Shown in pieces: positions 18,280 to 27,211 of a stretch of DNA of 64,000 nt (its first letter is position 1; the number at the start of each line of letters is the position of its first letter). The notes under the pieces are model-generated. The model was not told the DNA's origin and did not search any database. It saw nothing but the letters and a program-made list of their open reading frames with translations. This DNA comes from Paucimonas lemoignei. GTDB lineage: Bacteria; Pseudomonadota; Gammaproteobacteria; Pseudomonadales; Pseudomonadaceae. Both the position numbers and the translations under genes were made by a program. The stretch is from contig LS483371.1 of the NCBI GenBank assembly GCA_900475325.1, positions 372,001 through 436,000 on the forward strand. Reading direction: 5' to 3'.

Positions 18280-19499
18280 TGAGCGACATTATTAGACGTG
18301 ACCCACGCGCCGAGTGGATTGCGCGCAACCGTCTGCACCCACTGCACGCGGCCATGCAACCGGCGCAGAGCAGCTGGATGGGCCCCAACGGCCTGATGCG
18401 CAAAAACGTTCATGGTGTGGGCTTCATCGGTCCTAACGGCATCAAGCGCATTGACCGCAGCGGCGCTCAACAAGGCGGGGCGGTGAAGCGCACAGCCGCA
18501 GCCGACGTGCAGTTGCCGCTGCATCAGGTGCCGGAACCGGCGTTTTATATCTGTGTTGCACCCGACATGGTCGGCGGCCGCCTGAGCAGCCACGACCGGG
18601 ACTTGCTGGGCCTGGCTCATCAGCTCGCCGGTGCCAGTGGCGCCGTGTTGGCCGTGGTATTTGGCGAACATAAGGAAACCACCTTCGCGACCGCGGGCGT
18701 TGATCGCCTGCTCACGCTAGAGGGTGCCGAGTTCAGCGGCTATTCACCCGAGCAACGTGTGCAAGGTCTGCGCGCTGTGGATAACCAATTCAACCCACGT
18801 CACTGGTTGCTGCCGGACAGCCGCAGCGGTGGCGGCGAGCTGGGCCGACGCTTTGCGGCGAGCCTGGGTGAGCGCCCGGCCACGCGGGTCTGGCAGGTCA
18901 AGGATGAGCAGTGCATCGGTCGCGCGGGAGCCGGCCGTGAGGACCTGGCCCGGCCACTGGCGCGCCTGATTCTGGCAGCGGTGGAATGTGCCGAACCAGT
19001 CAGCGAAACCCGTCATGAAGCGCTGCCCGTGGAGTTATCCACAAGCGTGGCGCGCAGCTTGCCGCGTATCGAAGATCTGGGCGCAGTGGCGGTGGACCCT
19101 GGCTTGATCCCCATGGCCGAAGCCGAGTTCATCTTCTCCGGCGGCAACGGCGTGAAGGATTGGGATCTGTTTCATAAAACCGCTGCAGCGTTGGGCGCTA
19201 CCGAAGGCGCGTCTCGGGTGGCCGTGGACGATGGCTTCATGGGCCGCGATCGTCAGGTCGGTGCCAGCGGCACCTGGGTCACGGCGCGGGTCTATGTGGC
19301 GGTGGGCATCTCCGGCGCCATTCAGCATCTGCAAGGCATCGGTGCCTGCGACAAGGTGGTGGCGATCAACCTGGATCCCGGCTGCGACATGATCAAGCGC
19401 GCTGACTTGTCAGTGATTGGTGAGAGCGCGGAAATCCTCAAGGCGCTGATCGTAGCGGTTGAACACTATCGCAATGGAGCGAAGCAAGATGCGGCCTGA
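18279..19499 (+). CDS. etfA: Electron transfer flavoprotein alpha subunit, dgc-associated
   Basis: A 406-residue protein. The C-terminal FAD domain is clear: GASRVAVDDGFMGRDRQVG, AVGISGAIQHLQGIG and VVAINLDPGCDMIKRADLS. It is about 90 residues longer than housekeeping EtfA because of an N-terminal extension (residues 1 to about 85) that I do not recognise. It is translationally coupled to dgcB and corresponds to PA5400. It likely accepts electrons from dimethylglycine or sarcosine oxidation. Confidence 0.9.
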   Translation: MSDIIRRDPRAEWIARNRLHPLHAAMQPAQSSWMGPNGLMRKNVHGVGFIGPNGIKRIDRSGAQQGGAVKRTAAADVQLPLHQVPEPAFYICVAPDMVGGRLSSHDRDLLGLAHQLAGASGAVLAVVFGEHKETTFATAGVDRLLTLEGAEFSGYSPEQRVQGLRAVDNQFNPRHWLLPDSRSGGGELGRRFAASLGERPATRVWQVKDEQCIGRAGAGREDLARPLARLILAAVECAEPVSETRHEALPVELSTSVARSLPRIEDLGAVAVDPGLIPMAEAEFIFSGGNGVKDWDLFHKTAAALGATEGASRVAVDDGFMGRDRQVGASGTWVTARVYVAVGISGAIQHLQGIGACDKVVAINLDPGCDMIKRADLSVIGESAEILKALIVAVEHYRNGAKQDAA

Positions 19500-20295
19500 T
19501 CTCTTGAATGCGCCTGTGGATAAAGCGCCGTTGCACATCATCAGCCTCGTCTCCATTGGCGCGCACCCGACTTCCGGCCGCGCCCGTCGCGCCGAGCAGG
19601 ATGCCCGCGCAGTCGAGCTGGGCCTGCAACTGGCTGGGGATAACTTGCACGTGCTGCATGCGGGCAATGCTCATGAGCCTGCCTTGCGTGCCTACCTGGG
19701 CATGGGGCTGGATCAGTTGCACGTATTGGAACAGCCGGAAAACGCCGACGCATTGCCTGCGTTGAGTGATTACATCCGGGAGTCAGGTGTGCAGATGGTG
19801 CTCACTGGCAGCCAGGCAGAAACCGGTGAAGGCTCAGGCATGCTGCCGTTCCTGCTGGCGGAAAAGCTCGGCTGGCCACTGGTGGTCGGTCTGGCTGAAG
19901 TGGAATCGCTCGACAGTGGTTCAGCGCTGGTGTTGCAAGCGCTGCCCCGTGGTCAGCGGCGGCGCTTGAAAGTGCGTCTGCCGTTTCTCGCTACGGTGGA
20001 TAACGCCGCGCCCAAACCTCGGCAAAGCGCCTACGGCCCTTCACAGCGCGGCACGCTCGATGCCGAGCAGGTGGAAATCATCAGTGACGAGCTGCTCACC
20101 GGATCGGCGCTGCAACCAGCCAAACCACGGCCAAAGCGCTTGAAAGTCATCAAGGCCAAAAGCGGCGCCGACCGCATGAAAGCGGCCACTGCCAAAGCCA
20201 GCGGCGGCGGCGGGCAAGTGCTCAAGGGCGTGACGCCCGAAGCCGGGGCTGAGGCAATCCTCAAGCTGTTGATTGAAGAGGGTGTGGTGCGCTGA
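19489..20295 (+). CDS. etfB: Electron transfer flavoprotein beta subunit, dgc-associated
   Basis: A 268-residue adenine-nucleotide-alpha-hydrolase-like protein partnering the preceding alpha subunit. GSQAETGEGSGMLPFLLAEKLG is the beta-subunit signature. The C-terminal 60 residues are rich in Lys, Ala and Gly and unlike housekeeping EtfB. The ATG at 19489 overlaps etfA by 11 bases and follows GGAGCG; ATG at 19474 is an alternative. The stop is only 3 bases from the stop of the opposing DUF6708 gene, with no terminator between. Confidence 0.88.
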   Translation: MRPDLLNAPVDKAPLHIISLVSIGAHPTSGRARRAEQDARAVELGLQLAGDNLHVLHAGNAHEPALRAYLGMGLDQLHVLEQPENADALPALSDYIRESGVQMVLTGSQAETGEGSGMLPFLLAEKLGWPLVVGLAEVESLDSGSALVLQALPRGQRRRLKVRLPFLATVDNAAPKPRQSAYGPSQRGTLDAEQVEIISDELLTGSALQPAKPRPKRLKVIKAKSGADRMKAATAKASGGGGQVLKGVTPEAGAEAILKLLIEEGVVR

Positions 20296-20298
20296 GGC

Positions 20299-21426
20299 TC
20301 ATTTGCCAATAACTCGATCCGCCCGCTGCACCTCTGCAAATCGTGACGCAAGGTTTTGGCTGGGCCGTTTCTCGCGCAGGGCTTTCACCGCCTCGCTCAT
20401 GCGCCGCAGTTCAGCGCTGGGTTTGGCCCATTGCTCAGGCGGGAGCGGCTGCGACCAGCGTTGCATGGCATCGGGCACTACGGCGCGACCAATGCTCTTG
20501 ATGCGGCGGATCTCCCATTCGGTGAGGTAGTTGGGCAGGGTCCACAAGGTCAGGACGTGGTACAGGTACCACCAGAACGGATAGAAGAAACCCACTTCAC
20601 GATTTTTACGCCGTAGACGCATCCGCGCTCGCGCGTTGTAAAACGTGTGTACACCCTCATGAGGCGGGTCGCCGGGGTTTTGCAGCTCCAGCGGGTCCTG
20701 GATGTCCTTGAGGCTGTGCACCTCGTACTCCATGTACGCGCGAATCGCCTCCCAATTGCACACCGCCAGATCAAACCCCGCGCAGAAAAACTCCAGGCTG
20801 TAATGCTCATCGTGGGGCGGATGATAAAAGCCGACGCCCATGGCGTAGCGGATATCGGGGCCGTACTGCGTCACGCTTCGGGCCTGCACCACCCAGGCTG
20901 ACAGTGATTCCCATGGGACGAAGATAGGCTCGGTGTGCCCGCGCGGTACGAAGCAGACTTCCCGACGTTGGCGGTTGAAGCGGGTGGGGACGACTTCTTT
21001 GTATTTGAGGAGGTTCTGGAGGCTGATGGCGAGGTATATAGTTAGTGCTGCTGCTGCGGACCATCCTCCCACCTGCAGACCGAAAGGCAAATAGTCCAAT
21101 GCAAGTTCAGTAGCTAAAACAGGCCCGTTGCCTTCCCCTATTGTCATTAGCCATATCAGTCCAGAAGCAAATAAGCTAAAAAACCAAAGCGCCCAGAAAG
21201 GTGTCCCTAGTCCCATCTGCCAAGCAAAAACAGCGGGCAAACCGACTCCAAAGTCCAAATAGGTATCGGTTACTCCACCCACGGCGCCTCCGTAATCCTG
21301 GGCCGGCAGATCGGTGGGTAAGGGGAGTGGGGCCAGGTACGTAACCTGACCCGTCGGAAAAGCCTCCTGCATGCCAGCATAAGGGGTGTGATTTATCGGC
21401 GGCGGGCCTGCAATCTCCTTTGCCAT
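20299..21426 (-). CDS. DUF6708-type membrane protein, copy A (probable effector immunity protein)
   Basis: A 375-residue protein that appears to belong to DUF6708. A proline-rich N-terminus (PPPINHTPYAG, YLAPLPLPTDLP) precedes two predicted membrane segments (about 73-96 and 119-139) and a large soluble domain with another aromatic hydrophobic stretch (279-299). Compared with copy B (21562-22689), residues 141-375 are nearly identical (about a dozen differences by eye) while 71-140 match at only about half of positions. The position downstream of a VasX-like toxin suggests immunity by blocking pores in the membrane. Untested inference. Confidence 0.75.
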   Translation of the reverse strand: MAKEIAGPPPINHTPYAGMQEAFPTGQVTYLAPLPLPTDLPAQDYGGAVGGVTDTYLDFGVGLPAVFAWQMGLGTPFWALWFFSLFASGLIWLMTIGEGNGPVLATELALDYLPFGLQVGGWSAAAALTIYLAISLQNLLKYKEVVPTRFNRQRREVCFVPRGHTEPIFVPWESLSAWVVQARSVTQYGPDIRYAMGVGFYHPPHDEHYSLEFFCAGFDLAVCNWEAIRAYMEYEVHSLKDIQDPLELQNPGDPPHEGVHTFYNARARMRLRRKNREVGFFYPFWWYLYHVLTLWTLPNYLTEWEIRRIKSIGRAVVPDAMQRWSQPLPPEQWAKPSAELRRMSEAVKALREKRPSQNLASRFAEVQRADRVIGK

Positions 21427-21463
21427 CTTATTTCTTCACCTCAGGCACGAGGCTGGCGCTTGT

Positions 21464-21544
21464 CTGTAGGAGCGAACTTGTTCGCGAGGCAGTATTTCGC
21501 ATGACGCAGTGCCGACGTCTCGCCAACACGTTGACTCCTACAGG
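21464..21544. repeat. REPIN-like inverted pair, GAACTTGTTCGCG subtype
   Basis: Arms CTGTAGGAGCGAACTTGTTC and CGCCAACACGTTGACTCCTA with loop. It sits between the two DUF6708 copies. Same subtype as 43491-43564. Confidence 0.8.
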
Positions 21545-21561
21545 TTGAGCGTTTCCCAGGT

Positions 21562-22689
21562 TCATTGGGCAGTGCCTCGATCCGCCCGCTGCACCTCGGC
21601 AAACCGTGAAGCAAGGTTCTGGCTGGGCCGTTTCTCGCGCAGGGCTTTTACTGCCTGGCTCATGCGCAGCAGTTCAGCGCTGGGCTTGGCCCATTGCTCA
21701 GGCGGAAGTGGTTCTGACCAGCGTTGCATGGCGTCAGGCACTACGGCGCGACCAATGCTCTTGATGCGGCGTATCTCCCATTCGGTGAGGTAGTTGGGCA
21801 GGGTCCACAAGGTCAGGACGTGGTACAGGTACCACCAGAACGGATAGAAGAAACCCACTTCACGATTCTTGCGACGCCGACGCATGCGTTCGCGAGCGTT
21901 GTAAAACGTGTGCAGGCCTTCATGGGGAGGGTCGCCGGGGTTTTGCAGCTCCAGCGGGTCCTGGATGTCCTTGAGGCTGTGGACCTCGTATTCCATGTAC
22001 GCCCGAATTGCCTCCCAGTTGCACACCGCCAGATCAAACCCCGCGCAGAAAAACTCCAGGCTGTAATGCTCGTCGTGGGGCGGATGATAAAAGCCGACGC
22101 CCATGGCGTAGCGGATATCGGGGCCGTACTGCGTCACGCTTCGGGCCTGCACCACCCAGGCTGACATTGACTCCCATGGCACGAAGATGGGTTCGGTGTG
22201 GCCACTCGGGACGAAACAGACTTCCCGGCGTTGGCGGTTGAAGCGGGTGGGGACGACTTCTTTGTATTTGAGGAGGTGGTGGAAGGTGATGCCGAGGTAC
22301 ATGGTTAGGGTGACGGCGGCAAGCCAGGCTCCCATTTCGAGGCCGCTAGGGATCATCTTTAGCGAAAACTCGTTAGCCTGCTTCAACCCCCTTCCTTCCG
22401 CGATCGAAAGCAACCAGTCAAGTGCGGGGAAAAATAATCCAAAAAACCAAACTGCCCAAAACGGGCCGCCTAACGTCATTTGCCAGCCAAAAACGGAGGG
22501 GAGGCCGACGCCGAAATCCAGGTAGGTGTCTGTTACGCTTCCCACCGCTCCGCCGTAATCCTGCGCCGGTAAGTCGGTGGGTAACGGCAAGGGGGCCAGA
22601 TAGGTGACCTGGCCGGTAGGGAACACTTCCAGCATCCCTGCATAAGGGGCTTGATTGATAGGCGGCGGCCCTGCCATATCTATTGCCAT
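21562..22689 (-). CDS. DUF6708-type membrane protein, copy B (probable immunity protein, effector-coupled)
   Basis: A 375-residue paralogue of copy A with the same domain order: proline-rich N-terminus, two membrane segments (about 73-95 and 119-139), then a conserved soluble domain containing FNRQRREVCFV and TEPIFVPWES. Its ATG is one base after the stop of the effector gene, so the two must be co-expressed. That supports the view that this copy is the cognate immunity protein. The membrane hairpin is the only region that strongly differs from copy A. Confidence 0.78.
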   Translation of the reverse strand: MAIDMAGPPPINQAPYAGMLEVFPTGQVTYLAPLPLPTDLPAQDYGGAVGSVTDTYLDFGVGLPSVFGWQMTLGGPFWAVWFFGLFFPALDWLLSIAEGRGLKQANEFSLKMIPSGLEMGAWLAAVTLTMYLGITFHHLLKYKEVVPTRFNRQRREVCFVPSGHTEPIFVPWESMSAWVVQARSVTQYGPDIRYAMGVGFYHPPHDEHYSLEFFCAGFDLAVCNWEAIRAYMEYEVHSLKDIQDPLELQNPGDPPHEGLHTFYNARERMRRRRKNREVGFFYPFWWYLYHVLTLWTLPNYLTEWEIRRIKSIGRAVVPDAMQRWSEPLPPEQWAKPSAELLRMSQAVKALREKRPSQNLASRFAEVQRADRGTAQ

Positions 22690-22690
22690 C

Positions 22691-25600
22691 TTATTTCTTC
22701 ACCTCAGGCATGAGGTCTGGGTGGATCTTGAAGTACTCGCACTCTCCTGGTGGATCGAGGTCCACCGCCGGGAAGTCGCCGCTTTCATCCAACACCGGGA
22801 AGCGCACCTCGTAGACGTTGGCTTCGTATTGCCCTTTCGGCGTGATGAGCCCTAGCTGGATTGAAAGCACGACGTCGGAGTAACTGAGCACCTCTGGCTT
22901 GATCAGGCTGCGCAAGTCCGTGAATTCCACAATCAAGGGGTTGAGTTGCTTGATGTGCATGCGATCTTCCAGCGCCTCGCCTAAGGGCCTCCAGCACTCT
23001 GGGGTACGGTCCCGCCCGGTTTGTTCACGAGCAACCTGGTAGCCACCAATATTGAGCACGCTAGCGCTGGCGTGACTGCCTACAGGTTTTGTCAGCTCGG
23101 CAGCAGACAACATCGGGAAATGCAGCAAGAACTGTCGAGCTCCGTTATTGCTGCTCGGTATGATTTGCATGCGTGGAGCTTGGTAATACCAGCGCAGATC
23201 TTTGAGGTAATCATCAAGAGGTAATGAAACGCACAGGTCCGGATCCCGCCCCTGACCCCATGGCGTGCCAAGCAACCAGCGGTCGTGGCGACTGAGATTG
23301 TTGCGGTTGTAGTACCAACTGCCGCACAGCTCAAGGGCGGTGAGGAAAATCCCTGCGACGTTGAAGCGGAAAAACACCGTGGATAGGCGTGTACCGGCTG
23401 CAGCCCAAGCGGCGACTCTGGCAGGAGAGTTACGGGCTGTAGCTAATACGTGTTTGAAGGCGATGCCTGTCTGCAAAGCACCGTAGGAATTGCTGACCAG
23501 AAATCCGCCGTTGGCCAGCATGCTCATCACAGCACCGTTCTGGGCGTCGGTGTTGCCTTTGCGAACAGCGTCTTGCCAGTTGCTATGAGAGTTGGAGAGG
23601 CTCATGGCCGCTGCAATCATTCCTGCGGGATAACTGCCTACCCCAAGAGCGATGTGCAATTTCCCCATCTGGACATGAACACCCAAAAGCTCCGCTTTCT
23701 TCAGGTTTTTTGCCAGCTCTGCAGCATGAGCACTCAGGGCTGTATCGGCGATGCCTTGCGCTGCACCAAATCCAGCTGCAGCGGTTGCTGCTTGTGCGTT
23801 CCGATATGCGCTTTCATTTCGAGATTTATCAGGCTGAGCTAATGTTTCCCCGCGCACCACCACCAAATTCACCACCTGCGCCACAAACACCAACAACCCG
23901 GCCCCATCCCCCAGCAACCCGGCCTTAGGCGCTACCACCACTCCCTTCCGATAACTCTCCAGCACCGAACGCACCTCACGATGCTGCTGCGCCGGAAACA
24001 CCAGCGCCAACCCCGGTTTGCCGGAGGACGCGGTTTGCAGGTGGGTTGAGTCGGTTGGCAGATCGGCCACCGGGCTCATGGCCTTGGCCATGTATTGTTC
24101 CAGTTCGCTCAAGGACTGCTGAGTCTTCTGGCGTTGCTCCCTGGTCCAGTCGGCGTCGGTGCTCTGGTGCCAGTACGGGTCACGGGCTTTTTGCTCGCGG
24201 GCGTAGTTGGTCAGGTAGCGCAGGTGGTCACGTTTCTGCTGCACGGCCTGGAGGGTCTTGCCCAGGTGTTGCAGGTCTTCGGCGCTGGCGAACTGGAAGG
24301 TGACGTTCTCGCGCCGCGCCGCATCAAGGATCGCCACGCCCGCGGTATTGGGCAGGCGGCGAAACAGCGCTTCCATCTCCGGTAACTGGCCTTTGTCCAG
24401 CTCCTGCAAAAAGGCCTGCACGGCCTGCTGGATACCTGTCTGCAACGCGGGAGCCAGGGCGCCCCACGCGGCCGAGAGGTTAACCTGTGTCGCGGGCGAC
24501 AGTCGCTCGGTGTCGAGCACCAGACCCGCGCCCCATTGTTTGAGGCGCTCCATCCACGTGGGGGCATCTTTGATCAGCAACCAGCCTGCGTTGGCGAAAA
24601 CGGCAAACTGCACAGCCAGTTCGGTTTGCGCGCTCAAGGGCGCGGCGTAGAACATCGGGCGGGACATGGCGGGGTTGAGTTTCAGCCAGGCCAGCACTGA
24701 ATCGACGGCCTTGTCACTGCGGCATATGTCTTTGAGGCAGGCGTATTCGGTGAGCAAGGCGTGGTCGACTTGCTCGGCGTCTTCGATGTCGTAATACCAG
24801 ATCGCCCGGTGCAGACGGTTTTTGATCAACAGGTTGATGCGGTCCTGAGTGATCTTTTCCAGTTCTTCGTTGAGCGGCTGCAACACCGCCCGCTGCTGCT
24901 TGAGAAAGGCGTCCATGCGCGGGCGATCGATCAGGTCGTTGATGCCGCGCTGGCCGAATTTGGCGCCGTAAAGTGCGTCCTTGGTGGGCTTGTCCATCTG
25001 GCGATAGAGTCCCCACAGCGTCTGACGATGACGGGCAATGAACGCGGGGCTGGTGCCAACGAAGCGTTGCTCAAGGTAATACTGTTGAAGCGTGTGCACC
25101 CGAACTTCATGGCCTGCGTACATATGCGGCGGCTCGGCGCTTGGAGGGAGTGCTTTGAGGCGAGCCTGCAGCTCGGCAGGTAAATCGGGGTCTTCAAGGC
25201 GCGGAGCAGGGTGTTGGCTACTGTCTTCGCTCATCACCTCCCGCAACGTCTGGCGAGTCCGGCTGCGTTCCGGCTCTGGCAAGCGTTCAATGTCGTCCAG
25301 CAACGCCTTGAGCCCCGGGTTGGCTTTGGCCCGTTTACCCAGGTCCTCTTCGGTGATCTGGGTCAGGGATTCGATATAGCAGCCCAGCAAATAATCGCGC
25401 TCGACCACACCGTTCTGGCTCTGCGCCCAGTTGGCGATCTGCTCCACGATCTGATCCTGATGCTGGGCCAGGTCGCGCATCACGCCAACATCATCGCGTA
25501 CGGCGAGAAACAGAAAATCATGCTTGTGCTCAGCCGTGACCTGGCTGGTGAACTCTTCAAGGATGGTTTGCCGGTACAGCGGCGCGTGTTCCCAGGCGTA

Positions 25601-26212
25601 GGGAATCTCGGTGCTGGTTTCACCTGGTTTGTCCGCCCAGCTGGCGCTGGTTTCGGCCAGCCAGACGGCCATGGGGCGGTCGTCGAAAAGATCCACGCCC
25701 TTGCCGTACTGGACGTTGTCGAAGCTCACCCGCTGCATGAAATACTCGCGCTCGGCCGCGACTTTCATCACCTGAGCGCATTTGAACGCCGTCCACTGCA
25801 CCTCGGAAAAGGCTACGTGCAGCGTGGCCGAGCGGGAAAACAGCAGCGCCGGATCAGTCTCGATAACGGCAGCGCGACGATTGGCAGTCACTTCGCTGCC
25901 CTTGAACAGCAGGGCCACCACCGAACCGTCCTGCGTCTTGTACTCGTGCAGCAAACCCGTCGAACTGTCGATGACGTACAAAAAACCATCTCGAATCAGA
26001 CGAAACCCCAACGGCCGGGACTCCAGCGTGTAAGGCATGCTCAGCTCACGGGACGGATCAAGGTCTTCAACCCGGCCATAGCGCACCGGCAGCAGTTGCA
26101 GGGTCTGCATCATCAACGGGCACATACCCGCTGCGTCGAGGGGGTCATTGCTTTTGGCTTTGGCGACGAGGTTGGCCATGTGCCCGCGCGGGGTCTGGCA
26201 GTTGTCAGGCAT
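22691..26212 (-). CDS. VasX-like (BTH_I2691 family) type VI secretion effector, putative pore-former
   Basis: A 1173-residue protein. The N-terminal region fits the toxin VasX N-terminal domain: CPLMMQTLQLLPVRYGRVE at 31-49 and RPLGFRLIRDGFLYVID at 66-82. A long helical middle (about 210-720) has heptad-like stretches. Four hydrophobic segments follow at about 764-786, 853-872, 894-920 and 944-966, as expected of a colicin-like membrane-active toxin. The last 200 residues are soluble. The ATG at 26212 follows AAGGAGCC. No vgrG, hcp, PAAR or DUF4123 adaptor lies nearby, so loading must use components encoded elsewhere. No enzymatic motif is seen. Confidence 0.82.
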   Translation of the reverse strand: MPDNCQTPRGHMANLVAKAKSNDPLDAAGMCPLMMQTLQLLPVRYGRVEDLDPSRELSMPYTLESRPLGFRLIRDGFLYVIDSSTGLLHEYKTQDGSVVALLFKGSEVTANRRAAVIETDPALLFSRSATLHVAFSEVQWTAFKCAQVMKVAAEREYFMQRVSFDNVQYGKGVDLFDDRPMAVWLAETSASWADKPGETSTEIPYAWEHAPLYRQTILEEFTSQVTAEHKHDFLFLAVRDDVGVMRDLAQHQDQIVEQIANWAQSQNGVVERDYLLGCYIESLTQITEEDLGKRAKANPGLKALLDDIERLPEPERSRTRQTLREVMSEDSSQHPAPRLEDPDLPAELQARLKALPPSAEPPHMYAGHEVRVHTLQQYYLEQRFVGTSPAFIARHRQTLWGLYRQMDKPTKDALYGAKFGQRGINDLIDRPRMDAFLKQQRAVLQPLNEELEKITQDRINLLIKNRLHRAIWYYDIEDAEQVDHALLTEYACLKDICRSDKAVDSVLAWLKLNPAMSRPMFYAAPLSAQTELAVQFAVFANAGWLLIKDAPTWMERLKQWGAGLVLDTERLSPATQVNLSAAWGALAPALQTGIQQAVQAFLQELDKGQLPEMEALFRRLPNTAGVAILDAARRENVTFQFASAEDLQHLGKTLQAVQQKRDHLRYLTNYAREQKARDPYWHQSTDADWTREQRQKTQQSLSELEQYMAKAMSPVADLPTDSTHLQTASSGKPGLALVFPAQQHREVRSVLESYRKGVVVAPKAGLLGDGAGLLVFVAQVVNLVVVRGETLAQPDKSRNESAYRNAQAATAAAGFGAAQGIADTALSAHAAELAKNLKKAELLGVHVQMGKLHIALGVGSYPAGMIAAAMSLSNSHSNWQDAVRKGNTDAQNGAVMSMLANGGFLVSNSYGALQTGIAFKHVLATARNSPARVAAWAAAGTRLSTVFFRFNVAGIFLTALELCGSWYYNRNNLSRHDRWLLGTPWGQGRDPDLCVSLPLDDYLKDLRWYYQAPRMQIIPSSNNGARQFLLHFPMLSAAELTKPVGSHASASVLNIGGYQVAREQTGRDRTPECWRPLGEALEDRMHIKQLNPLIVEFTDLRSLIKPEVLSYSDVVLSIQLGLITPKGQYEANVYEVRFPVLDESGDFPAVDLDPPGECEYFKIHPDLMPEVKK

Positions 26213-26356
26213 CGTAGGCTCCTTGCCGAATCGGGCGGACGGCCCGTGGCGAAGGCGCAAGGTTGGCCGATGAACACCGCCCGCTCAATGCAGGGAAGGG
26301 GGTTTGGGAAAGGTCCTACGAGAATTGTCTAAGCCGGTCCTACGATTTTGGCGGTG

Positions 26357-26444
26357 CTGTAGGAGCGGCTTCAGCCGCGAAGATCTCGGCCTGCACGAGA
26401 TTTCTATCGTCAGCACCATCGCTCGCGGCTAAAGCCGCTACGGG
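26357..26444. repeat. REPIN-like inverted pair, GGCTTCAGCC subtype
   Basis: Arms CTGTAGGAGCGGCTTCAGCC and GCGGCTAAAGCCGCTACGGG. It occupies part of the 336-base gap upstream of the effector gene; nothing else recognisable is there, and no promoter could be assigned with confidence. Confidence 0.8.
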
Positions 26445-26548
26445 AAACATTTCAATTCAAAGAGTTATTTCGTTGGATAGGCGATGGCGCGGTGCTCACT
26501 AACACCGCGCTATGTTCAGCAAGCGTCGACCCTTGCCATCACGATCAA

Positions 26549-27211
26549 TCAAACCCACCCATCATTCTTCTTCCGCCCACGGGTCAGGGCCGGGATGATC
26601 AGGCCGACCAGCAGGCCTGCGCCGGCAATGCTGCCGCCGTAGATCATGTAGCGCATCAGCACGAGATTGTTTTCGTCGCCGAGCTTGGCTTGGGTGGTGC
26701 GCAGTTCGGACTGTGAGTCGGTGAGCTGGGCGTTGAGGTCTTTGGTGCGTGCTTCCAGTTCGTCGATCAGCTTTTTGCGCGTATCCAGGGTTTCCTGCAT
26801 GCCTTGCACGCGGGTCTTCCAGCTGTCATCGATGGTTTTCAACTGGCCGCTGAGGTCGGCCACTTGCTGGGTCAATTCCGGCAGGCGCTCGGCCTGGCCT
26901 GGTTCGCTCTGCAGGTCATTGGTGGGGATCCACACAGAGCTGCCACCTTCGCCGCGCACCTGGCTGTAATCGCCCTGAGTGTTGATCAACTCGACTTTCT
27001 GTCCGGATTTCAGCGTGCCTACGATGCGATAGCCATCAGTCGGTCCACTGCGCACGAAGGTGTTCAGGCTGTCGCTGACCCAGCGGTCGTTGGCCTTGGG
27101 TTCGGCGGCCTGGGCGGTGCTGCAGGCGGCAATCAGCAAAGCGGCACCCAGGGTGCGGCGGTTGAGCAGTCGATGAGAAATGAAGGCTGAAAGATGACGA
27201 GACATAGACAT
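26549..27211 (-). CDS. TIGR04211-type SH3-domain protein (YgiM-like)
   Basis: A 220-residue envelope protein: signal sequence (LGAALLIAACSTAQA), bacterial SH3 domain (about 40-100, with TFVRSGPTDGYRIVGTL), coiled coil (about 105-180, LSGQLKTIDDSWK onward) and a C-terminal membrane helix (YGGSIAGAGLLVGLIIPAL) followed by Arg/Lys. This layout is that of E. coli YgiM. The role is unknown. Two in-frame ATGs (27211, 27205) are possible. A 7-bp inverted repeat (TTATCTT/AAGATAA, 27214-27238) lies immediately upstream. Confidence 0.88.
   Translation of the reverse strand: MSMSRHLSAFISHRLLNRRTLGAALLIAACSTAQAAEPKANDRWVSDSLNTFVRSGPTDGYRIVGTLKSGQKVELINTQGDYSQVRGEGGSSVWIPTNDLQSEPGQAERLPELTQQVADLSGQLKTIDDSWKTRVQGMQETLDTRKKLIDELEARTKDLNAQLTDSQSELRTTQAKLGDENNLVLMRYMIYGGSIAGAGLLVGLIIPALTRGRKKNDGWV

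What the first reader, a model, noticed from the sequence alone, without database searches (positions are those of the whole stretch)
20299..26212. Stand-alone VasX-like effector with two membrane-protein partners
The 1173-residue protein has a VasX-type N-terminus and four C-terminal hydrophobic segments, and is followed one base later by a DUF6708-like membrane protein and then by a second copy of it. No vgrG, PAAR, hcp or adaptor gene is near, and the flanks are core genes. This looks like an exported pore-forming toxin with membrane immunity proteins, carried as a cargo module. DUF6708 proteins as immunity factors is, as far as I know, not an established function.
Basis: partly seen in the sequence, partly recalled or inferred. 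Interest (0 to 1): 0.78.

Follow-up and report, generated by a model that had tools for sequence, protein, structure and literature searches.

The report
Satellite pore toxin with variable immunities
A Pseudomonas carries a spare copy of a pore-forming weapon that bacteria inject into rivals, sitting alone with two membrane proteins that very probably protect its owner; the kind is known, but the spare copy differs from its twin mainly in the last third, which holds the pore, and the protectors differ mainly in one membrane-spanning stretch.

Summary
The 1173-residue protein is a full-length relative of Ptx2, a solved type VI secretion pore-forming toxin (E=5e-236), followed after one base by two 375-residue membrane proteins, remote DUF6708 relatives. 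'Pore toxin with membrane immunity proteins' is well supported and of a known kind: a 2026 paper lists a DUF6708 protein as predicted immunity of such a toxin. In a 119-genome sample of the genus, 101 of 130 DUF6708-like genes lie downstream of a VasX-type gene; 19 of the other 29 are at contig ends. 'Stand-alone' is true but common: 35 of 62 VasX-type genes in 22 well-assembled genomes lack an upstream adaptor gene. Less expected: the cassette is a satellite of a copy at 4.62 Mb that faces tap and vgrG. The two toxins differ at 27 of 785 residues before the pore region and 93 of 388 from it onward; the five immunity copies vary mainly in residues 61-145, a membrane hairpin. A boundary at residue 772-826 recurs in 11 of 13 same-genome toxin pairs. 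I infer that one adaptor loads several dispersed toxins with exchanged pores and matching immunity hairpins. Nothing was bench-tested; no structure was obtained.

The parts
22691..26212 (-). VasX/Ptx2-type pore-forming T6SS effector, 1173 aa (E1)
   Evidence: PF20249 E=1.9e-21; PDB 9qpv Ptx2, residues 6-1170, E=5.1e-236; NCBIfam BTH_I2691 101 bits, below its cut-off of 150
25721..26122 (-). VasX_N / MIX region (residues 31-164), delivery head
   Evidence: residues 31-240 are 98% identical to the paralogue at 4.62 Mb
23333..23857 (-). hydrophobic pore module (residues 786-960), divergent from the paralogue
   Evidence: 66.9% identity to paralogue against 96.9% in 241-785; pS 0.66-0.69 against 0.06-0.22 upstream; changepoint at residue 787
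22694..23332 (-). C-terminal tail (residues 961-1173), matching the Ig-like beta region described for Ptx2/Tke5 (inferred)
   Evidence: 83.6% identity to paralogue; domain order from PMC12909789 passages
21562..22689 (-). immunity protein I1a, 375 aa, DUF6708-like, probable cognate
   Evidence: one base after effector stop; relation to DUF6708
22264..22503 (-). variable membrane hairpin of I1a (residues 63-142)
   Evidence: 48 of 85 columns vary in 61-145 against 29 of 290 elsewhere among five copies
20299..21426 (-). immunity protein I1b, 375 aa, 85% identical to I1a
21001..21240 (-). variable membrane hairpin of I1b (residues 63-142), 55% identical to that of I1a
21427..21561 (.). spacer between the immunity genes with a pair of REP-like palindromes, kept in the paralogous array
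   Evidence: REP is a recalled name
20295..26344 (.). extent of the duplicated cassette (homology to L030)
   Evidence: blastn: from the last base of the etfB stop codon to about 130 bp upstream of the effector start

Best explanation
The locus is an antibacterial T6SS effector-immunity cassette of the VasX/Ptx2 (BTH_I2691) kind. The effector's N-terminal MIX-type head is loaded, by an adaptor and VgrG encoded elsewhere (most likely the tap-vgrG pair beside the 90% identical paralogue at 4.62 Mb), onto the genome's T6SS (one TssK match). In the rival's periplasm the helices around residues 758-965 insert into the inner membrane and depolarise it. The two inner-membrane proteins protect the owner; their variable hairpin (residues about 61-145, with its loop probably on the periplasmic side) recognises the variable pore module. 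The window cassette is a satellite copy: its delivery scaffold is kept like that of the home copy, while the pore module and immunity hairpin have been exchanged for another specificity; the extra immunity copies guard against related toxins. Shown here: homology, linkage, duplication, location of the variable regions, pattern across genomes. Inferred: toxicity, protection, which immunity fits which toxin, loading by the distant adaptor.
For: Full-length homology to Ptx2. DUF6708-like genes linked to VasX-type genes, 101 of 130; in 37 of 38 effector-immunity pairs the immunity frame opens before or within 31 bases after the effector stop, by the earliest possible start. E1 and E2 differ at 27 of 785 residues before and 93 of 388 after residue 785, Fisher p=5e-26; silent divergence jumps as well, from 0.06-0.22 to 0.66-0.69, which points to exchange of a segment, not point selection alone. 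Five immunity copies vary mainly in 61-145 (48 of 85 columns against 29 of 290, p=5e-18). Grouping switches along the gene: E1 is nearest E2 in 241-785 (96.9 against 90.3% to the P. viridiflava home copy), but in 786-960 E1 is nearest that copy (71.9 against 66.9%, a modest margin) and E2 is nearest two other pseudomonads (73.7%). Same-genome pairs of an effector without and one with a neighbouring adaptor: changepoint at residue 772-826 in 11 of 13, all 13 above every one of 100 shuffles (some pairs share a gene). A T2-type adaptor gene faces the cassette, or an immunity gene cut by a contig end, in the own genome and four relatives. Immunity hairpin distance follows pore distance after allowing for the scaffold (partial Mantel 0.39, p=0.0005), not the head (-0.05, p=0.73), 33 pairs.
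Against: No toxicity, protection, secretion or binding was tested. The BTH_I2691 cut-off (101 of 150 bits) and Pfam DUF6708 (no hit) are not met by the window proteins themselves. The rest of the immunity protein follows the pore module even more closely than the hairpin does (partial 0.63), and the hairpin also follows the tail (0.27) and the scaffold (0.26), so the hairpin is not singled out by that test; Mantel p-values are liberal for related sequences. One of 13 pairs breaks at residue 420 and one, only 56% identical overall, at 860. In five of the 15 genomes that hold an adaptor-less VasX gene no VasX gene has a DUF4123 gene upstream, so shared loading is not shown there. I2c, not I2a, has the hairpin most like I1a (85%), so position alone does not tell cognate pairs. 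No structure could be predicted.
Confidence: 0.75

Rival explanations
1. The satellite is a non-delivered reservoir: without its own adaptor it is not loaded, and it serves only as a store of pore and immunity alleles that are copied into the vgrG-linked home locus by gene conversion.
For: Scaffold alike within the genome while pore alleles differ; satellites lack tap and vgrG. Toxin loci that draw on orphan modules are known (a Salmonella case by Koskiniemi is mentioned in PMC5361080 passages; polymorphic toxins, PMC3482391, abstract start in the listing).
Against: The window satellite keeps an intact full-length reading frame, start signals and immunity genes; the upstream region is also conserved with the home copy; the head stays 98% identical, as expected if still recognised by the adaptor.
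Confidence: 0.15
2. The membrane proteins, or the second one, are not immunity proteins but partners in delivery or membrane insertion of the toxin.
For: They are membrane proteins made with the effector; array size varies from 1 to 8 genes.
Against: Immunity genes remain next to effector remnants (L051, L052, L059); copies vary in the presumed contact region; a DUF6708 protein is named as immunity of a BTH_I2691 toxin in print; Tki5 protects against the related Tke5 (passages).
Confidence: 0.06
3. The C-terminal divergence is simply faster evolution of a tolerant region, without exchange or selection for specificity.
For: The tail is less conserved than the head across the 33 pairs (mean distance 0.73 against 0.50).
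Against: Silent divergence rises about five-fold at the same point; between two other pseudomonads (L039, L042) the pore region is more conserved (94%) than the scaffold (86%), and over the 33 pairs pore and scaffold are equally diverged (0.66 each); the best-match partner changes with the region.
Confidence: 0.08
4. The effector acts on eukaryotic cells (amoebae, plant) rather than on bacteria.
For: VasX kills both amoebae and bacteria according to PMC12909789 passages.
Against: Linked immunity genes and arrays point to self or sister intoxication, hence bacterial targets.
Confidence: 0.05

Closest known systems
Ptx2 of Pseudomonas aeruginosa (PDB 9qpv) with adaptor Tap6 and VgrG6
   Same: Full-length sequence relative (residues 6-1170 on 23-1185, E=5.1e-236): head, large helical region with enclosed membrane helices, C-terminal tail (architecture from PMC12909789 passages).
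   Different: Ptx2 is described with Tap6 and VgrG6 (same passages); the window copy has neither nearby. The immunity protein of Ptx2 was not compared.
Tke5-Tki5 of Pseudomonas putida (K3-T6SS)
   Same: Same toxin family and domain order; the helical region is the toxin and is neutralised by a cognate immunity protein (PMC12909789 passages).
   Different: Tke5 lies in vgrG3-tap3-tke5-tki5-paar; about 17% identity between Tke5 and Ptx2 is reported there. Whether Tki5 is DUF6708-like was not tested.
V3-Tsi3a of Stenotrophomonas rhizophila CFBP13503
   Same: BTH_I2691 toxin with a DUF6708 protein listed as its immunity, followed by an array of homologues (PMC13340143 passages).
   Different: Encoded in a vgrG-tap operon in the main T6SS cluster; no separate satellite toxin described in the passages seen.
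Immunity gene arrays by sequential effector displacement in Vibrio cholerae (Kirchberger 2017)
   Same: Arrays of immunity genes kept after effector change, with recombination (PMC5361080 passages).
   Different: There effector-immunity modules (for one cluster counted with their adaptor) replace one another in the T6SS clusters; here full-length toxins at separate sites share the scaffold and differ in the pore part.

Membership tests
VasX / BTH_I2691 T6SS pore-forming toxins | VasX_N (PF20249) above the curated cut-off | tested here: met
   77.2 bits against 27
VasX / BTH_I2691 T6SS pore-forming toxins | NCBIfam NF041559 BTH_I2691 above its cut-off | tested here: not met
   101 bits against 150, though aligned over residues 36-987; of the seven paralogues five are also below and two above. 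This is a naming threshold, not a biological feature
VasX / BTH_I2691 T6SS pore-forming toxins | Full-length similarity to a characterised member | tested here: met
   Ptx2, E=5.1e-236 over residues 6-1170
VasX / BTH_I2691 T6SS pore-forming toxins | C-terminal hydrophobic helices | tested here: met
   segments starting at 758, 773, 852, 946 (hydropathy only)
VasX / BTH_I2691 T6SS pore-forming toxins | Delivery by a T6SS present in the genome | tested here: inconclusive
   one TssK match, VgrG-type (PF05954) matches at five places, five DUF4123 matches; delivery itself not testable
VasX / BTH_I2691 T6SS pore-forming toxins | Membrane depolarisation, toxicity | not testable with these tools
   -
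DUF6708 (PF20455) | Match of the window proteins above the curated cut-off | tested here: not met
   no hit at E<=1
DUF6708 (PF20455) | Homology through intermediates that match the family | tested here: met
   25-31% identity to L031/L032 proteins, of which one scores 34.5 bits against a cut-off of 27 and two lie below it
T6SS immunity proteins | Gene directly downstream of its effector | tested here: met
   one base apart; 101 of 130 relatives linked
T6SS immunity proteins | Protects against the cognate effector | not testable with these tools
   -

The most novel reading that the evidence does not exclude
One adaptor, many pores: pseudomonads keep an adaptor-linked pore toxin plus dispersed full-length satellite toxins that share its loading scaffold by ongoing gene conversion but carry exchanged pore modules, each matched by a DUF6708-type (or unrelated) immunity protein whose short variable membrane hairpin is the lock for that pore. 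This would be a dispersed, adaptor-sharing diversification scheme for large pore toxins and would locate the immunity contact in a membrane hairpin.
Probability: 0.5. Interest if true: 0.6.

Novelty: new variant of a known kind. Interest (0 to 1): 0.46.

Why it matters
How immunity proteins stop VasX/Ptx2-type pore toxins is not described at residue level in the passages I saw. Five natural immunity proteins that are nearly identical outside one hairpin, and two natural toxins that are nearly identical up to the pore module, give a ready-made set for mapping that contact. The satellite pattern also means that counting toxins only behind an adaptor gene misses many: in 22 genomes 35 of 62 such genes had no DUF4123 gene upstream (the 35 include the 4.62 Mb home copy, whose adaptor faces it).

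Tried and rejected
Horizontal cargo island: rejected as unproven. No integrase or transposase was among the 21 flanking ORFs given to Pfam. etfB and the SH3 gene are 6 kb apart here. Of 14 other genomes that gave both matches, they are 41 kb apart and in the opposite order in one (G026), 1.0-3.4 Mb apart on one contig in six, and on different contigs in seven, so there is no simple empty site to show.

Anti-phage defence: PADLOC gave no hit for the three proteins at E<=0.01.

Solved relatives of the immunity proteins: none at E<=1 with a profile of eight.

A LysM-headed 836-aa protein in G074 (L056) that precedes unlinked DUF6708-like genes was compared with the effector profile: no relation (hhalign probability 0.4%).

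Papers: no description of satellite VasX copies with exchanged pore modules was seen in searches (titles and abstract starts of an open-licence library, plus the passages cited; two wanted papers are not held), so absence in print is not established.
Full report
What is there. Three genes on the minus strand, 20299-26212: an effector of 1173 aa (22691-26212) and two membrane proteins of 375 aa (21562-22689 and 20299-21426). The effector has a VasX_N domain (E=1.9e-21) and is a full-length relative of Ptx2, PDB 9qpv (789 bits, E=5.1e-236). It falls below the NCBIfam BTH_I2691 cut-off (101 of 150 bits), as do five of its seven paralogues. The membrane proteins have no direct family hit but are 25-31% identical to three proteins in the same genome that match DUF6708, one above and two below its cut-off.

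Surroundings. The flanks hold ETF alpha and beta genes and neighbours (dimethylglycine-type pathway, recalled), an SH3-domain membrane protein, a methyltransferase, HDOD, a Fapy-DNA-glycosylase and gamma-glutamyltranspeptidase genes (family names). The genome (5.92 Mb, one contig) has one TssK match, VgrG-type matches at five places and five DUF4123 matches, all outside the window.

Eight VasX-type genes in this genome. Arrangement read from the fetched stretches: window, stand-alone with two immunity genes; 4.62 Mb, effector plus three immunity genes facing a tap-vgrG pair on the other strand; 2.14 Mb and 1.36 Mb, tap-effector-DUF6708; 2.68 Mb, stand-alone; 5.60 Mb, vgrG-tap-effector; 4.93 Mb, stand-alone; 0.79 Mb, vgrG-tap-effector. 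Three stand-alone genes each have a closest partner at a vgrG-tap locus: 90%, 77% and 66% identical overall.

Where the partners differ. For the window and 4.62 Mb effectors, 27 of the first 785 residues differ against 93 of the last 388. Silent divergence is 0.06-0.22 before residue 785 and 0.66-0.69 in 786-960, falling to 0.35-0.41 in the tail. The immunity copies (two here, three there) are nearly identical outside residues 61-145; 22 of the 27 positions with three or more different residues lie in 75-133, across two hydrophobic segments, the first starting between 72 and 80 in the copies (one copy has a further one at 57) and the second at 116. The stretch after the second segment is rich in arginine and lysine, so the loop between the segments is probably periplasmic (inference). 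In a second, unrelated immunity family of this genome (4.93 Mb and 0.79 Mb loci) the variable part is again one block, about residues 120-180, at 15-60% identity against 77-100% in residues 180-330.

Other genomes. I took 22 of the 56 genomes with VasX genes, those with at most 9 contigs. They hold 62 VasX genes; 27 have a DUF4123 match within 2.5 kb upstream on the same strand, 35 do not (the 35 include the 4.62 Mb home copy, whose tap faces it). Fifteen genomes hold a gene without, and 10 of these also one with. I fetched 20 loci from eight other genomes. Pairs of a gene with and one without adaptor could be compared in seven: two genes of G034 are not intact, G104 is only 56% identical but was kept, and G015 L071 is a different subfamily (20-23%) and was not paired. 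With three pairs of the own genome this gives 13 pairs in eight genomes, some sharing a gene: a changepoint at residue 772-826 (own numbering of each protein) in 11, at 420 in one and at 860 in one; all exceed the best of 100 shuffles. Not fetched for this: the third G057 gene, two G003 genes and the G011 fragment.

Exchange between lineages. In residues 241-785 the window effector is nearest its own paralogue (96.9%) and next the P. viridiflava home copy (90.3%); in 786-960 it is nearest P. viridiflava (71.9 against 66.9%, a modest margin), while the paralogue is nearest two other pseudomonads (73.7%). This fits a scaffold kept alike within the genome and a pore module older than the species. 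The home arrangement, an adaptor gene facing the cassette, is seen in the own genome, G022 and G050, and, with the cassette cut by a contig end, in G115 and G026. In G115 a second copy lies beside hemL (L038) and in G026 a second immunity end lies beside a DUF1820-like/miaB pair (L049; these gene names are recalled from the protein sequences), so satellites sit at other sites than here.

Linkage. Profile A2 gave 130 merged DUF6708-like genes in 38 genomes of a 119-genome sample of the genus (tallied 39 genomes; one weak match was not printed). 101 lie downstream of a VasX_N match on the same strand within 16 kb; by chance one would expect about 0.3% (own arithmetic: 137 VasX genes in 56 genomes, one strand, 16 kb in about 6 Mb). 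Of the 29 others, 19 are within 3.5 kb of a contig end on the effector side and 10 are not; three of the 10 carry an effector C-terminal remnant directly upstream. 56 of 137 VasX genes have at least one such gene downstream; arrays hold 1 (27), 2 (19), 3 (8), 4 (1) or 8 (1). So 81 of 137 VasX genes have no DUF6708 relative found behind them; in the own genome such genes are followed by other, unrelated small families.

Does immunity follow the pore? In 33 effector-immunity pairs (38 found, five distant ones dropped; 11 further loci had no intact effector by the profile and four no immunity gene over 270 aa), the hairpin distance follows the pore distance after allowing for the scaffold (0.39, p=0.0005) and not the head (-0.05, p=0.73). 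Against a special role of the hairpin, the rest of the immunity protein follows the pore more closely (0.63), and the hairpin also follows the tail (0.27) and the scaffold (0.26). The test supports toxin-immunity matching but does not by itself locate it.

Literature. Papers were seen as passages: Tke5 structure, PMC12909789 (outline and abstract too); Bte2, PMC12718326; S. rhizophila effectors, PMC13340143; V. cholerae arrays, PMC5361080; S. maltophilia, PMC13055248; PMC4868534 and PMC8926400. The original Ptx2 papers were not read (one was asked for and is not held) and are known here only through those passages and the PDB name. DUF6708 occurs in one paper of the library, which lists a DUF6708 protein as the V3 immunity; the passages seen show no direct protection test of it.

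Verdict. A real, well-built member of a known kind of weapon. The satellite copy with an exchanged pore module, and immunity proteins that vary in one membrane hairpin, is the part worth following.

Noticed in passing
window 21427-21561; L030 12007-12141 and 13270-13404: The spacers between tandem immunity genes each hold a pair of REP-like palindromes (GTAGGAG...GCTCCTAC), a possible substrate for the tandem duplications; another REP-like site lies at window 26359, just outside the end of the duplicated cassette.
   Followed up: partly
window 19459-27211: etfB and the SH3 gene, 6 kb apart here, are 41 kb apart in the opposite order in G026 and otherwise 1 Mb or more apart or on different contigs in 13 further genomes; the cassette seems to sit at a rearrangement junction, and its twin at 4.62 Mb on the other strand could drive inversions (idea only).
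   Followed up: partly
L059 7171-9757 (G115:C31): In P. viridiflava p8.G2 the first two thirds of a tap gene are followed directly by the last quarter of the effector, with the DUF6708 immunity gene open: a toxin lost, its immunity kept.
   Followed up: partly
L056 2903-12134 (G074:C4): A 691-aa vgrG-like gene, a 295-aa gene, an 836-aa LysM-headed protein and then DUF6708-like genes: the LysM protein is unrelated to VasX by profile comparison, so DUF6708 proteins may also guard against another toxin.
   Followed up: partly
L036 14677-16434, L042 1938-3695, L047 3494-5251: A 585-aa gene (carbamoyltransferase-like, recalled) neighbours the 0.79 Mb vgrG-linked effector here but the window-type effector in G022 and G050: perhaps a shared T6SS cargo site with different toxins.
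   Followed up: no
G023 (six VasX_N genes): One relative holds six VasX-type genes and no DUF4123 match at E<=0.001, so its loading must differ or its adaptors are too divergent.
   Followed up: no
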